64,000 nt of DNA, from the NCBI RefSeq assembly GCF_000526495.1, contig NZ_JAGE01000001.1, forward strand, positions 1,300,001 to 1,364,000, written 5' to 3'. The first letter of the stretch is position 1, and each line of letters begins with the position of its first letter. The notes beneath the pieces are model-generated. The model made no database searches and was not told the origin of the DNA. It was given only the letters and a program-made list of their open reading frames with translations. The stretch comes from Ruminiclostridium josui JCM 17888. GTDB taxonomy: Bacteria > Bacillota > Clostridia > Acetivibrionales > DSM-1351. The position numbers and the translations under genes were made by a program. Positions 266-28,236 of the stretch are shown here, one piece after another.

Positions 266-309
266 CGCTAAAAAGCCGGATTGCATTTTCCGGCCTTTTT
301 AGCGTTTAA
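266..309 (+). terminator. Rho-independent terminator after the YlbF-family gene
   Basis: A perfect 15-bp stem (CGCTAAAAAGCCGGA paired with TTCCGGCCTTTTTAGCG across a 7-nt loop) starts 18 nt after the stop codon. The A/T-rich flanks would let it act on both strands, which suits the convergent gene that ends at 312. Confidence 0.85.
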
Positions 310-311
310 AT

Positions 312-740
312 TTAAACTGCATTATGAACAAAGGAAACTATTGATGCTACAGGTATATCAGTTACCGAGCCTACTGTATAAACAGGTAAGGAATCCCAAC
401 CTCCTGCAGCTGCAGCTCCGTTTATACTTGCCGGCAAAACCGGTCCCATGCCATATCCCCCGGATGAACCACATCCGATGCCCATATCAGCACTACTGCC
501 GTGTCCGTATTCCGAATTAAATCCGGTACATGCATTACCCAGTGAACATCCTGGTGATGGCCCTATTCTAGTTATCAATCTAACAAAAACATTGTTTACT
601 GTTAATAAAACTCCGGTAAAGCCTGAGCCAGACTCTCCTCCGCTGCTTGTGAAAATAGTTACAGTCTGGCCTATATAATTTGCAAGCAGTGCGTCCCATT
701 TACCTACTGATGCTCCTGTAAATCCGCATCCTTCTCCCAT
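312..740 (-). CDS. Putative spore-coat-like Gly/Cys protein, paralog A
   Basis: A 142-residue protein. The start at 740 is chosen because AAAGGAG lies 8 nt upstream; a longer frame to 776 has no such site. It has a conserved N-terminal block (LLANYIGQTVTIFTSSGG followed by SGSGFTGVLLTVN and VFVRL), a CX5C pair in GCSLGNAC, a variable Gly-rich middle with further Cys, and a C-terminal block GGWDSLPVYTVGSVTDIP ending in VSFVHNAV. Two paralogs lie at 912-1358 and 1774-2163. I do not recognise the family. The beta-rich pattern resembles a small Sm/SH3-like barrel interrupted by a Gly-rich insert (inference). A SigK-like promoter upstream suggests mother-cell expression during sporulation. No signal peptide is seen. 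Confidence 0.7.
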   Translation of the reverse strand: MGEGCGFTGASVGKWDALLANYIGQTVTIFTSSGGESGSGFTGVLLTVNNVFVRLITRIGPSPGCSLGNACTGFNSEYGHGSSADMGIGCGSSGGYGMGPVLPASINGAAAAGGWDSLPVYTVGSVTDIPVASIVSFVHNAV

Positions 741-787: not shown

Positions 788-818
788 CATATTATGTTGA
801 CGATATACATATTGTTAC
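788..818 (-). promoter_or_regulatory. SigK-like promoter of paralog A
   Basis: Reading the minus strand, GTAAC (818-814), a 17-bp spacer, then CATAATATG (796-788). This fits the SigK pattern (AC at -35, CATAnnnTA at -10). The same arrangement precedes the genes starting at 1358, 2163 and 2613. Confidence 0.65.
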
Positions 819-844
819 TTTTATATAATTCAAGCCTTAAAAGA

Positions 845-875
845 CAAAAATAGAGACTGGTAAATAACCAGTCTC
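845..875 (-). terminator. Terminator after paralog B
   Basis: GAGACTGGT and ACCAGTCTC form a 9-bp stem around AAATA, followed on the minus strand by a T-rich tract. It lies 36 nt past the stop of the gene at 912-1358 and separates it from paralog A, so each paralog appears to be its own unit. Confidence 0.8.
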
Positions 876-911
876 ATAAAGCATTGCTATCTTTTCATAC
901 TATTACATACT

Positions 912-1358
912 TTAAACTGCATTATGGACAAAGGATACTATTGATTTTATAGGTATATCTGTTACTGAACCCACCGTATATACCGGAATCGAATCCCAGC
1001 CTCCTGCAGTTACAGCGCCGCTTACGCCCCCTGGAACTATAGCACCCGACATTCCTGTACCTTTTCCGCCGAAACCGGAACCGCAGCCAGCTCCGTATCC
1101 TTCACCCGCTGAAAATTTTGAACAGGAATTTCCTAGAGCACATCCCGGAGGTGGACCTATTCTGGTAAGTAATCTTACAAATACAGAATTAACAGTCATT
1201 AGCACACCTGTAAAACCTGAGCCAGACTCTCCTCCACTGCTTGTAAAAACAGTTACAGTCTGACCTATATATTTTGCGAGCAGTGCTTCCCAGTTCACAG
1301 CCTGTGAACAAGATGGTGCTTTTGCTACTCCACGTTCAAATTCAAATTCTTCTGACAT
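912..1358 (-). CDS. Putative spore-coat-like Gly/Cys protein, paralog B
   Basis: A 148-residue paralog of the proteins at 312-740 and 1774-2163. It has an acidic N-terminus (EEFEFE) absent from the other two, then WEALLAKYIGQTVTVFTSSG, GFTGVLMTVNSVFVRLL, RIGPPPGCALGNSC with the conserved CX5C, a Gly-rich variable middle containing GAGCGSGFGG, and the shared C-terminal block ending in SIVSFVHNAV. AAGGAGG supports the start at 1358. It is probably a structural protein of the spore surface; that role is inferred from composition, paralogy and the SigK-like promoter at 1390-1420. Conserved cysteines could allow disulfide cross-linking (inference). Confidence 0.7.
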   Translation of the reverse strand: MSEEFEFERGVAKAPSCSQAVNWEALLAKYIGQTVTVFTSSGGESGSGFTGVLMTVNSVFVRLLTRIGPPPGCALGNSCSKFSAGEGYGAGCGSGFGGKGTGMSGAIVPGGVSGAVTAGGWDSIPVYTVGSVTDIPIKSIVSFVHNAV

Positions 1359-1389
1359 TCCACGTCCTCCTTAATACTTAAATCTACTT

Positions 1390-1420
1390 CATCTTATGTG
1401 AACTTAAGAAGAAATGTGAC
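1390..1420 (-). promoter_or_regulatory. SigK-like promoter of paralog B
   Basis: Minus strand: GTCAC (1420-1416), 17 bp, CATAAGATG (1398-1390), followed by AAGTAGA. Same layout and spacing as three neighbouring promoters. Confidence 0.65.
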
Positions 1421-1430
1421 TGATTGTAAA

Positions 1431-1468
1431 TAAAAACAACAACCTGACTGTATTCCGTCAGATTGTTG
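1431..1468 (-). terminator. Terminator after paralog C and the Tyr-rich gene
   Basis: CAACAACCTGAC (1437-1448) pairs with GTCAGATTGTTG (1457-1468) with one mismatch; on the minus strand it is followed by TTTTTATTTA. It closes the unit that starts at 2163. Confidence 0.8.
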
Positions 1469-1486
1469 CTTTTATTTATATTAGAT

Positions 1487-1749
1487 TCAATAATAGTTAT
1501 TGTCACTGCAGTCATTACCTCTTCCATAACCGGAGTTCCTATGATATTCCAAAGAAGCATCATAGTTATTTCCATAGTACTGCTTTAGTACTGCTTTTCA
1601 TTCCAACCATATAATCCGTATACACCGTAAACCATGTTTCCGTAGAATCCAAAGGGATATACGTAATTACACCAACTGTAAAGTAAATACAGATATGGCT
1701 GTATGAACCCTCCATAAAAAGGTAAATATCTTGTATCTGCAGTACTCAC
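1487..1749 (-). pseudogene. Tyr/Gly/Asn-rich small protein, reading frame split by an 11-bp tandem duplication
   Basis: From the GTG at 1749 the frame gives 54 residues (stop TAA at 1585-1587), rich in Tyr and Gly: it starts MSTADTRYLPFYGG and includes VYGVYGLYGWNEKQY. The stop lies at the junction of two adjacent copies of an 11-bp unit (1575-1585 and 1586-1596). If one copy is removed, translation runs on for 29 residues of the same composition (YGNNYDASLEYH, then GYGRGNDCSDNNYY) to a TGA at 1487-1489, giving 83 residues. The gene follows paralog C by 24 nt, probably in one transcript. The start site is weak, with a G-run directly before GTG. It could be a broken gene, a working truncated form, or a slippage-variable gene. 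A coat-associated role is inferred. Confidence 0.6.
1575..1596. repeat. 11-bp perfect tandem duplication
   Basis: TAGTACTGCTT occurs twice with no gap. Eleven is not a multiple of three, so the duplication shifts the frame of the Tyr-rich gene on the minus strand. Confidence 0.95.
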
Positions 1750-1773
1750 CCCCCAGGCTAAAATTGCTTTTTA

Positions 1774-2163
1774 TTAAACTGCATTGTGTACAAAAGAAAC
1801 AATTGCTGTAATAGGTATATCTACTACAGAACCAACAGTATAAACAGGCATATTATCCCATCCACCTGCATTAACAGCTCCGACCTGTCCTGCCGGGCCA
1901 CCTGCTACATAACCTGAACCACATCCTGCTCCGTATCCTCCACCATAAGCACCTTGTGAAAATCCACTGCAGGAATTACCAAGAGAACATCCTGGAGGTG
2001 GACCAATTCTGGATATTAATCTTACAAAAACAGAATTTACTGTTAGAATTACTCCAGTGAAGCCAGAACCTGACTGACCACCGCTACTTGTAAAAATTGT
2101 TACTGTCTCTCCAACATAGTTTGCAAGCAAAGCGCCCCAATTTGCACATCCACAATCTGACAT
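1774..2163 (-). CDS. Putative spore-coat-like Gly/Cys protein, paralog C
   Basis: A 129-residue paralog, the shortest of the three. It starts MSDCGCANWGALLANYVG, followed by ETVTIFTSSGGQSGSGFTG, then TVNSVFVRLISRIGPPPG, the CX5C pair CSLGNSC, a Gly/Tyr/Ala-rich middle (AYGGGYGAGCGSGY), and GGWDNMPVYTVGSVVDIP ending in IVSFVHNAV. AAAGGAGA supports the start. The small Tyr-rich reading frame lies 24 nt downstream, so the two are probably co-transcribed from the SigK-like promoter at 2197-2227. A structural role on the spore surface is inferred; no enzymatic motif is visible. Confidence 0.7.
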   Translation of the reverse strand: MSDCGCANWGALLANYVGETVTIFTSSGGQSGSGFTGVILTVNSVFVRLISRIGPPPGCSLGNSCSGFSQGAYGGGYGAGCGSGYVAGGPAGQVGAVNAGGWDNMPVYTVGSVVDIPITAIVSFVHNAV

Positions 2164-2196
2164 AGTACGCTATCTCCTTTCATTTATTTTATACTA

Positions 2197-2227
2197 TACT
2201 TTATGTCTACTAATCAGTTTGTGTTAC
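2197..2227 (-). promoter_or_regulatory. SigK-like promoter of paralog C
   Basis: Minus strand: GTAAC (2227-2223), 17 bp, CATAAAGTA (2205-2197), followed by TAGTATA. Same layout as three neighbouring promoters. Confidence 0.65.
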
Positions 2228-2247
2228 TTTTGATATAACTTTTAATC

Positions 2248-2613
2248 CTATGTATCCTTGGTTATTTCTACCCTGACTTTTTCATAAGGTTCTTCGTTCC
2301 TGCCTTTTGATTGTGAAAAAACATGGATATCCAGACATGCGTTTTGCATATTTTCATATCCGGTACCATCATTTGATATCACATCATAGTTAGTTATGTT
2401 ATGGAGATTAAAAGGTATTATATTGCCGGAATCATCCATATAGTTGATTTCCAGTTTTTCAATCTTGGAATCCACAGGACTGGTCCAATATGGCTTAAAA
2501 CCAACTCCTATAATTCTTCCGCTAATACCATGAGAAGGTATATTCAGTCTGCACCCTTGCCTGGCAAGATTCAAGAGAGCAAACTTTAGATTTTCGATTC
2601 GTTTGTAATTCAT
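2248..2613 (-). CDS. Uncharacterised 121-residue protein, probably sporulation-associated
   Basis: I do not recognise this protein. It starts MNYKRIENLKFALLNLARQG and has no signal peptide or membrane segment. The predicted structure is an N-terminal helix followed by mixed beta strands, with charged residues at the C-terminus (EKVRVEITKD). The ATG at 2613 is preferred because GGAAG lies 8 nt upstream; a GTG nine bases further upstream is possible. The promoter at 2656-2686 is the best of the four SigK-like promoters here, so co-expression with the Gly/Cys paralogs is likely (inference). Confidence 0.6.
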   Translation of the reverse strand: MNYKRIENLKFALLNLARQGCRLNIPSHGISGRIIGVGFKPYWTSPVDSKIEKLEINYMDDSGNIIPFNLHNITNYDVISNDGTGYENMQNACLDIHVFSQSKGRNEEPYEKVRVEITKDT

Positions 2614-2655
2614 CAATGTCACTTCCGTAAACCTACCACCAATAATCAGCTACTA

Positions 2656-2686
2656 TATCTTATGTTCACTTGCCTGTTAAGGTTAC
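2656..2686 (-). promoter_or_regulatory. SigK-like promoter of the 121-residue protein gene
   Basis: Minus strand: GTAAC (2686-2682), 17 bp, CATAAGATA (2664-2656), followed by TAGTAGC. This matches AC-N17-CATAnnnTA exactly. Confidence 0.7.
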
Positions 2687-27636: not shown

Positions 27637-28236
27637 TTATGGGCATATATTATGTTTTTCAGGTTTTACAGTTATTTGTACATTTCTTAGTACTTTAATG
27701 TCTATCTTTACAATAACCTTTTCTCTTAATTTTCTGTACTGCGTAACTGCTCCTTTTTGCCAAATTGGATCTTCCAAAATATCTATCTCGCAGGAATCTT
27801 CAACGTCAGCGTATTCTATTTCATAGTCATCACCGGGACGAGCTCCGGGGATTTCTATGAAACATGCGAATGGTATATTAACTGCAACATGCCTTACGTC
27901 TCCGTAAAAGCTGTCGTATCTCTGACAAGCGTAATAGAAATCACTTTTGCCTTCATAAGTTTTGTAATTGATATTCTTATGCAAAATGCCGTTAATTAGA
28001 ACTTTGTTTTTACATACGTGTACTATTATGTCTCTTATCTCTTTTTGAATATCCTTGATCTCAACAGCAGGGTACTGCTCAGGAAATGGAACAACACATT
28101 CTACCAATGTCTGGCAGATGTTTCTGCCAATGACCTCAGGAACCATAATGCACTTTTCACTCAGTTTTTTCCCTGCGTCATAATCAAATTCGCCACCACA
28201 GCACTGGCTTTTCTGATTAATTTCAAATTGTGACAT
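27637..28236 (-). CDS. SPOCS-domain (DUF3794) protein, spore-associated
   Basis: A 199-residue protein whose central part (about 55-185) fits the SPOCS/DUF3794 domain: VLINGILHKNINYKT, then VRHVAVNIPFACFIEIPGA and VKIDIKVLRNVQITV. Such domains occur in spore-coat morphogenesis proteins, often with LysM; no LysM is present. The N-terminus has Cys-Cys (QCCGGEF). No signal peptide is visible. A SigK-like promoter can be drawn at 28268-28300 (GTAAC, 16 bp, AATAGTATATAG), weaker than those near 1-3 kb. Confidence 0.75.
   Translation of the reverse strand: MSQFEINQKSQCCGGEFDYDAGKKLSEKCIMVPEVIGRNICQTLVECVVPFPEQYPAVEIKDIQKEIRDIIVHVCKNKVLINGILHKNINYKTYEGKSDFYYACQRYDSFYGDVRHVAVNIPFACFIEIPGARPGDDYEIEYADVEDSCEIDILEDPIWQKGAVTQYRKLREKVIVKIDIKVLRNVQITVKPEKHNICP

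What the first reader, a model, noticed from the sequence alone, without database searches (positions are those of the whole stretch)
788..2686. Four neighbouring genes share one SigK-like promoter design
Upstream of the genes starting at 740, 1358, 2163 and 2613 the minus strand reads GT[AC]AC, then exactly 17 bp, then CATAANNT[AG], then an A/T-rich tail ending in TAG/TAT. The four sites are unlikely to match by chance at identical spacing. The AC / CATAnnnTA pattern fits mother-cell SigK. This ties three paralogs and an unrelated unknown gene into one late-sporulation regulon, and makes them candidate coat or exosporium proteins.
Basis: partly seen in the sequence, partly recalled or inferred. 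Interest (0 to 1): 0.75.

Follow-up and report, generated by a model that had tools for sequence, protein, structure and literature searches.

The report
Spore-coat gene cluster with SigK promoters
Four neighbouring genes of a spore-forming clostridium each carry the promoter signature of the late mother-cell factor SigK, conserved in front of the same genes in other species, which makes their uncharacterised proteins strong candidates for parts of the spore's outer shell.

Summary
It is a conserved promoter, not chance. The general form AC-N15-18-CATANNNT[AG] lies upstream of 33 of 40 homologs of the three paralogs in other clostridia, 24 of 25 loci of the fourth gene, 28 of 30 dpaA-like and 24 of 26 yabG loci (SigK genes in C. 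difficile), but 0 of 30 spoIVA loci (SigE control) and 1 of 47 other window ORFs. The genome has a sigK in two pieces 16.4 kb apart. SigK control is thus well supported, without expression data. The paralogs match no named family; a partly confident model suggests a small Sm/SH3-like barrel with a long Gly-rich insert, with weak structural matches to Sm/Hfq proteins, spore coat protein GerQ and the spore-borne Mnx complex. The fourth gene is unrelated in sequence, but 16 of its 25 copies lie beside a family member. Best reading: a late mother-cell spore-envelope cluster, new families in a known kind of regulon.

The parts
788..818 (-). SigK-type promoter of gene 1: -35 GTAAC (814-818), N17, -10 CATAATATG (788-796)
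   Evidence: footprint across homologs
1390..1420 (-). SigK-type promoter of gene 2: -35 GTCAC (1416-1420), N17, -10 CATAAGATG (1390-1398)
   Evidence: footprint across homologs
2197..2227 (-). SigK-type promoter of gene 3: -35 GTAAC (2223-2227), N17, -10 CATAAAGTA (2197-2205)
   Evidence: same design and position before the R. papyrosolvens homolog in L031
2656..2686 (-). SigK-type promoter of gene 4: -35 GTAAC (2682-2686), N17, -10 CATAAGATA (2656-2664)
   Evidence: 24 of 25 gene-4 loci carry the general motif
312..740 (-). gene 1: 142 aa paralog (ATG at 740), putative spore-envelope protein with a Gly-rich insert
912..1358 (-). gene 2: 148 aa paralog
1774..2163 (-). gene 3: 129 aa paralog; modelled as helix, three strands, low-confidence Gly-rich stretch, two strands
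2248..2613 (-). gene 4: 121 aa protein (ATG at 2613), a separate family that often lies next to the paralogs
1585..1749 (-). 54 aa Tyr/Gly-rich ORF (GTG start) 24 nt after gene 3, no SigK-type site of its own in the 260 nt upstream; probably co-transcribed with gene 3
   Evidence: partly conserved in L031 (65% over residues 1-33) and L234 (71% over 1-37)
853..875 (-). terminator-like hairpin after gene 2
1444..1461 (.). terminator-like hairpin between the gene 3 / Tyr-rich unit and the promoter of gene 2 (scored on + only; by eye also followed by T-runs on -)
275..294 (.). terminator-like hairpin after gene 1 (scored on + only; by eye usable from both sides)

Best explanation
The four sites are promoters read by the late mother-cell sigma factor SigK, presumably after its interrupted gene has been made whole. 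Each paralog has its own such promoter, and gene 4 with its own promoter lies immediately upstream of gene 3, so all are made together late in sporulation. The three paralogs and gene 4 are most likely structural proteins of the spore coat or outermost spore layer. The paralogs are predicted to have a small Sm/SH3-like barrel core that could assemble through its edge strands into rings, filaments or sheets, with a long Gly-rich loop exposed. Shown: motif, placement, conservation, agreement with SigK-type genes, absence before a SigE gene, presence of sigK in two pieces. Inferred: actual SigK dependence, excision of the sigK insertion, location in the spore, assembly.
For: Four strict sites against 0.02 expected. 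Footprint 33 of 40 and 24 of 25, against shuffle means of 1.33 of 40 (max 4) and 1.15 of 25 (max 4) and 1 of 47 window ORFs. Preferred spacing 17: AC at N17 before CATA-N3-T[AG] counted 29 times in the 40 family regions and 23 in the 25 gene-4 regions. Aligned on CATA, the sites also conserve GTAAC and a following TA (CATA and T[AG] are there by construction). dpaA-like 28 of 30, yabG 24 of 26, spoIVA 0 of 30. In C. difficile dpaA and the YabG-like CD3569 have SigK promoters and spoIVA a SigE promoter (PMC3789822, passages). Split sigK in this genome. Other strict sites precede a YmaF gene (a YmaF-like gene falls to 0.04 in the C. difficile sigK mutant) and a 138 aa gene with the general motif in 20 of 24 loci. 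Fold; weak RimP-SH3 profile hits in 17 of 41 members, best E 0.015. Gene 4 beside the family in 16 of 25 copies, and all 24 gene-4 genomes hold the family (hand count).
Against: No expression or proteomic data. Outside the cluster the strict pattern is no commoner than its reversed control (9 against 9). The near-full-length yabG-like gene of this genome lacks the motif. The fourth, divergent paralog (L057) has GTAAC and CATA only 14 nt apart, not 17 (read). Seven of 40 homologs lack the general motif (L014, L015, L019, L020, L033, L044, L050; L033 has a run of N there and L050 follows another copy). The same regions carry the motif on the opposite strand in 5 of 40 and 7 of 25 cases, above the shuffles. 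All dpaA-like matches score below NCBIfam's cut-off (0 of 60 over it) and the profile gives weak matches in all 14 control genomes, so that set is named by strong best match only. The paralog model has mean pLDDT 59 and no Foldseek hit with E below 0.08. GTAAC is not general to SigK genes: GCAC in 24 of 25 dpaA-like contexts, TCAC in 13 of 21 yabG contexts.
Confidence: 0.82

Rival explanations
1. The promoters are read by SigE (early mother cell), or by SigE and SigK in turn, since the two factors have very similar -10 elements.
For: C. difficile work reports very similar -10 sequences for the two (PMC3789822, passages).
Against: The -35 here is AC at N17, the reported SigK form, not ATA. spoIVA, SigE-dependent in C. 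difficile, has the motif in 0 of 30 loci. In the aligned homolog sites the -35 positions read GTAAC. Only one SigE gene was used as a control.
Confidence: 0.1
2. GTAAC is the binding site of a further regulator, for example a SpoIIID-like repressor or activator, that overlaps the -35 and marks a coat sub-regulon within the SigK genes.
For: GTAAC recurs in the family, gene 4 and the L012 gene, while dpaA-like sites have GCAC (24 of 25 contexts) and yabG sites mostly TCAC (13 of 21).
Against: The element stays at fixed distance from CATA and all forms end in AC, as expected of one -35 element with variable neighbours. I did not search for a regulator with this site.
Confidence: 0.12
3. The proteins are late mother-cell proteins but enzymes or metal- or RNA-binding factors (Sm/Hfq-like, Mnx-like), not structural coat components.
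For: Foldseek hits include LSm/Hfq proteins and small chains of the Mnx complex, a spore-borne manganese oxidase (PMC5622069, passages).
Against: Multiple paralogs with long variable Gly-rich inserts suit structural proteins. Conserved metal ligands were not looked for. Weak evidence either way.
Confidence: 0.15
4. The four sites match by chance or by recent duplication of one promoter with its gene.
For: Three of the four genes are paralogs, so their sites could be copies.
Against: Gene 4 is unrelated in sequence yet has the site. The spacers of the four sites share little by eye, and the pattern holds across genera.
Confidence: 0.01

Closest known systems
SigK regulon promoters of Clostridioides difficile
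   Same: AC as -35, CATA-type -10, late mother-cell genes such as dpaA and a yabG-like gene (PMC3789822, passages)
   Different: here the -35 reads GT[AC]AC and the -10 CATAANNTR; none of the four proteins matches a named family
SigK promoters of Bacillus subtilis
   Same: two-block promoter; PMC517825 (passages) gives a 5 nt -35 and a 10 nt -10 block 14-16 nt apart, which fits if the -10 block starts before CATA
   Different: the letters of the logos are in figures that are not held; the consensus AC-N17-CATAnnnTA is recalled
GerQ, Bacillus spore coat protein that forms filaments
   Same: small fold with five strands; Foldseek rank 5 (8zra_A, prob 0.87, E 0.24); the GerQ core has two helices and five strands and stacks in rings of nine (PMC11405398, passages)
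   Different: GerQ is not among the four PDB sequences that the family profile reaches at E up to 10; long Gly-rich insert in the paralogs; assembly untested
Small chains of the Mnx complex of Bacillus sp. PL-12 (9bxa chains E and B, by size MnxE/MnxF, inferred)
   Same: Foldseek ranks 1 and 3 (E 0.085 and 0.15); MnxE and MnxF form a hexamer in a spore-borne complex (PMC5622069, passages)
   Different: weak E-values, low-confidence model; an mnxG-like partner was not searched for
YmaF-family sporulation genes
   Same: a YmaF gene elsewhere in this genome carries the same strict promoter; a YmaF-like gene is in the C. difficile SigK list
   Different: a different protein family from the four in the window

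Membership tests
SigK-dependent promoter | -35 element with AC | tested here: met
   all four sites; conserved in homologs
SigK-dependent promoter | -10 element of the form CATAnnnT[AG] about 17 nt downstream (exact consensus recalled; PMC3789822 passages give AC and a CATA-type -10) | tested here: met
   N17 in all four; N17 is the peak in homologs
SigK-dependent promoter | same architecture before SigK-type genes of relatives and not before a SigE gene | tested here: met
   28 of 30 dpaA-like, 24 of 26 yabG, 0 of 30 spoIVA
SigK-dependent promoter | same architecture before SigK-type genes of this genome itself | tested here: inconclusive
   own dpaA-like gene has it, own near-full-length yabG-like gene does not; only these two were looked at
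SigK-dependent promoter | genome encodes SigK | tested here: met
   two pieces, residues 4-118 and 109-226, 16.4 kb apart, each 173.5 bits; whether they are rejoined was not tested
SigK-dependent promoter | transcription depends on SigK | not testable with these tools
   no expression data
Spore coat or exosporium protein | present in purified spore envelopes | not testable with these tools
   no proteomic data; inferred from regulation and composition
Sm-like / small beta-barrel fold (paralogs) | N-terminal helix and five strands (defining features recalled) | tested here: inconclusive
   model shows H9-14, E20-25, E35-42, E46-51, E112-117, E121-126, mean pLDDT 59, residues 53-110 below pLDDT 50; many Sm/Hfq hits, best E of all hits 0.085
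Known Pfam, NCBIfam or PHROGs family | profile match above cut-off | tested here: not met
   no Pfam match over its cut-off was seen for the paralogs or gene 4, and no NCBIfam or PHROGs match at the E-values asked (PHROGs searched with genes 1, 3 and 4 only)

The most novel reading that the evidence does not exclude
The cluster defines a new class of spore-envelope building block in Clostridia, an Sm-like barrel with a long Gly-rich loop that polymerises like GerQ, with gene 4 as a conserved partner or scaffold. Its GTAAC -35 marks a coat-specific sub-class of SigK promoters distinct from the GCAC/TCAC forms of dpaA-like and yabG genes.
Probability: 0.3. Interest if true: 0.65.

Novelty: new member of a known kind. 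Interest (0 to 1): 0.45.

Why it matters
Coat proteins are hard to find by homology because they diverge quickly (general knowledge). Here a promoter footprint ties two unnamed protein families, present in many Clostridia genera, to the late mother-cell programme, and gives a concrete motif for finding more of the SigK regulon in this order. If the paralogs are Sm-like building blocks similar in design to GerQ, they would suggest a common architectural principle for spore shells across Bacilli and Clostridia.

Tried and rejected
Rejected: chance (and the controls); simple promoter duplication with the paralogs (gene 4 is unrelated); a Shiga-toxin B-like reading of the paralogs (Pfam E 0.19, below cut-off) and a KAS III reading (phmmer E 0.015 over residues 24-94), both taken as noise. 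A relation of gene 4 to the paralogs was tested and not supported (hhalign probability 0.3%). Gene 4's fold gave no convincing PDB match (best E 0.075 with probability 0.18). The family profile reaches only weak PDB sequence hits, among them Rof (E 0.65).

Led nowhere or weak: the general genome search GTAAC-N16-18-CATANNNTR gave 34 sites against 21 in the reversed control; I did not analyse these site by site beyond the strict 13. The class-wide family search found it in 11 of 147 genomes; I did not run the matching SpoIVA search there, so no sporulation co-occurrence is claimed at class level. In the 60 genomes searched near home (the window's own included), 29 of the 30 that hold the family have a spoIVA match (the exception is G043), but 56 of all 60 do, so this says little. 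The VIA-align library was not available. No published name or study of the family appeared in the listings; with no family name to search for, and no family papers opened, that is a weak negative. One search scanned the gene-4 loci without turning the minus-strand ones round and is void; one search repeats it correctly.

Rows dropped before counts: yabG was scored on 26 of the 30 loci given, leaving out L168-L171, whose matches begin at residue 71 or later. The dpaA-like and spoIVA sets are the best 30 loci returned, not all matches, and do not include the window's own genome. In one search, 24 of the 25 loci given were scored (L271, a second piece, left out). In one search, 41 sequences were aligned: 3 from the window, 31 of the 40 matches and 7 further copies on those loci. 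In one search, 35 of the 40 regions could be anchored on CATA; L014 and L044 were anchored on other CATA words and L034 on a CATA further upstream than its real site, so its counts are slightly diluted.

Full report
What was claimed.

Check of the observation. A search of the window finds exactly four matches, at 788-818, 1390-1420, 2197-2227 and 2656-2686, all on the minus strand, with 0.02 expected and none of 100 shuffles reaching four. They lie 31-47 nt upstream of the ORFs starting at 740, 1358, 2163 and 2613. In the whole 4.47 Mb genome the strict pattern occurs 13 times, against 9 for the reversed pattern. By bare count, the nine sites outside the cluster are therefore at background. 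By placement they are not: with one fixed rule for a nearby Shine-Dalgarno-led ORF, 8 of 13 motif sites qualify and 0 of 9 reversed-pattern sites do. The fourth cluster gene misses that rule for want of a clear Shine-Dalgarno.

What the genes are. Genes 1-3 are paralogs; genes 2 and 1 are 75% and 68% identical to gene 3. A fourth, divergent copy lies elsewhere in the genome. No Pfam match over a cut-off and no NCBIfam or PHROGs match was found. A scan of the species-genome collection gave 40 relatives, in Acetivibrio, Ruminiclostridium, Defluviitalea, Alkalibaculum, Clostridium prolinivorans and many uncultured Clostridia. The scan uses two conserved peptides, so it will have missed distant members. 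R. papyrosolvens has the same cluster, with gene 4 at 93% and the neighbouring hemerythrin gene at 88%, which places the window in or near that genus (inference). Gene 4 (121 aa) is unrelated to the paralogs by profile comparison. It is found in 24 of 60 genomes, the window's own among them, all of which hold the paralog family, and 16 of its 25 copies lie within about 2 kb of a family member (hand count). Nine of the 40 named loci hold gene 4 within their flanks. A 54 aa Tyr/Gly-rich ORF follows gene 3 by 24 nt and is partly conserved in two relatives.

Phylogenetic footprint. AC-N15-18-CATANNNT[AG] was sought in the 220 nt upstream of each homolog. It is present in 33 of 40 paralog loci, nearly all starting about 60-85 nt before the start codon, and in 24 of 25 gene-4 loci, 56-194 nt before the start (this set includes the window's own copy and close relatives). 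Shuffles of the general form give means of 1.33 of 40 and 1.15 of 25, and 47 other mechanically called ORFs of the window give 1. On the reverse strand of the same regions there are 5 and 7, some of which may serve divergent family members (not checked). Seventeen is clearly the preferred spacer. Aligned on CATA, the sites also conserve GTAAC and a following TA. The seven paralog loci without the motif are L014, L015, L019, L020, L033, L044 and L050.

Which sigma factor. In C. difficile the -10 elements of SigE and SigK are very similar, while the -35 is ATA for SigE and AC for SigK; dpaA and a YabG-like gene have SigK promoters and spoIVA a SigE promoter (PMC3789822, passages). I used these as controls in the relatives: dpaA-like 28 of 30, yabG 24 of 26, spoIVA 0 of 30. 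In the window's own genome the dpaA-like gene has the site and the yabG-like gene does not. All dpaA-like matches are below the NCBIfam cut-off, and that profile also gives weak matches in all 14 control genomes. The genome has a sigK gene in two pieces, 16.4 kb apart, as expected of a skin-type insertion; its excision was not tested. Two other strict sites support a regulon: one precedes a YmaF gene, a family with a SigK-dependent member in C. difficile, and one a 138 aa gene with the general motif in 20 of 24 loci, 56-199 nt upstream. GTAAC is common to the family, gene 4 and that gene, while dpaA-like sites read GCAC (24 of 25 contexts) and yabG sites mostly TCAC (13 of 21); the AC core is shared by all.

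What the proteins may do. The paralog model has a helix, three strands, a low-confidence Gly-rich stretch (53-110) and two strands; its core blocks score well but the mean pLDDT is 59. Foldseek's best matches are two small chains of the Mnx complex (a spore-borne oxidase; by size MnxE and MnxF, inferred), LSm and Hfq proteins, Rpp29 and the spore coat protein GerQ, with E-values of 0.085 and up. GerQ has five strands and forms stacked nine-membered rings (PMC11405398, passages). MnxE and MnxF form a hexamer (PMC5622069, passages). Seventeen of 41 members hit the RimP SH3 profile weakly. An Sm/SH3-like barrel is thus likely but not proven. Gene 4 is modelled well (pLDDT 88) but matches no known fold convincingly.

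Conclusion. SigK control is strongly supported by sequence evidence; a role as coat or outer-layer structural proteins is the most likely reading and is inferred. The kind of system is known; the two protein families and their link to SigK did not show in the paper listings, which is a weak negative because the families have no name to search for.

Noticed in passing
own genome G000:C1:294795-302564 (locus L225): spoIVA is split at about codon 400 by some 6.3 kb that hold a 550 aa serine-recombinase-like ORF, a dockerin-type glycoside hydrolase-like ORF and two ORFs resembling AgrC and AgrB (all named by eye); a 10 bp direct repeat, CAATACATAT, lies at both junctions. A split at the same place is listed for G002, G005, G007 and G009 (5.4-6.3 kb between), G003 (about 39 kb between) and G052 (two contigs); what lies between was read only in G000. 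G001, G004, G006, G008 and G010 have uninterrupted matches. It looks like a skin-type intervening element. Searches listed papers on sigK, gerE, yabG and spsM insertions, none titled for spoIVA.
   Followed up: partly
own genome G000:C1:3338635-3355696: sigK is in two pieces with 16.4 kb between them; two pieces are also listed for G001-G005 and G007-G009, while G006 has an uninterrupted match (list cut).
   Followed up: no
own genome G000:C1:1823253-1823456: A short N-terminal yabG-like piece (residues 2-69) stands apart from the yabG-like gene at C1:2072155; similar short pieces are listed for other genus members. A yabG insertion element is reported in C. botulinum (PMC10747680, abstract start only).
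   Followed up: no
own genome, loci L007, L008, L011: Three more genes with the strict promoter 29-35 nt upstream: a 112 aa protein, a 65 aa Cys/Gly-rich protein and a DUF2935 protein; candidates for the same regulon.
   Followed up: partly
L057 (G000:C1:2898948-2899124): The divergent fourth paralog has GTAAC and CATAGTAT upstream but only 14 nt apart (read), so it may be controlled differently.
   Followed up: partly
27637-28236: The only one of 47 control ORFs in the window with the general motif, 152 nt upstream of its start; may be chance.
   Followed up: no
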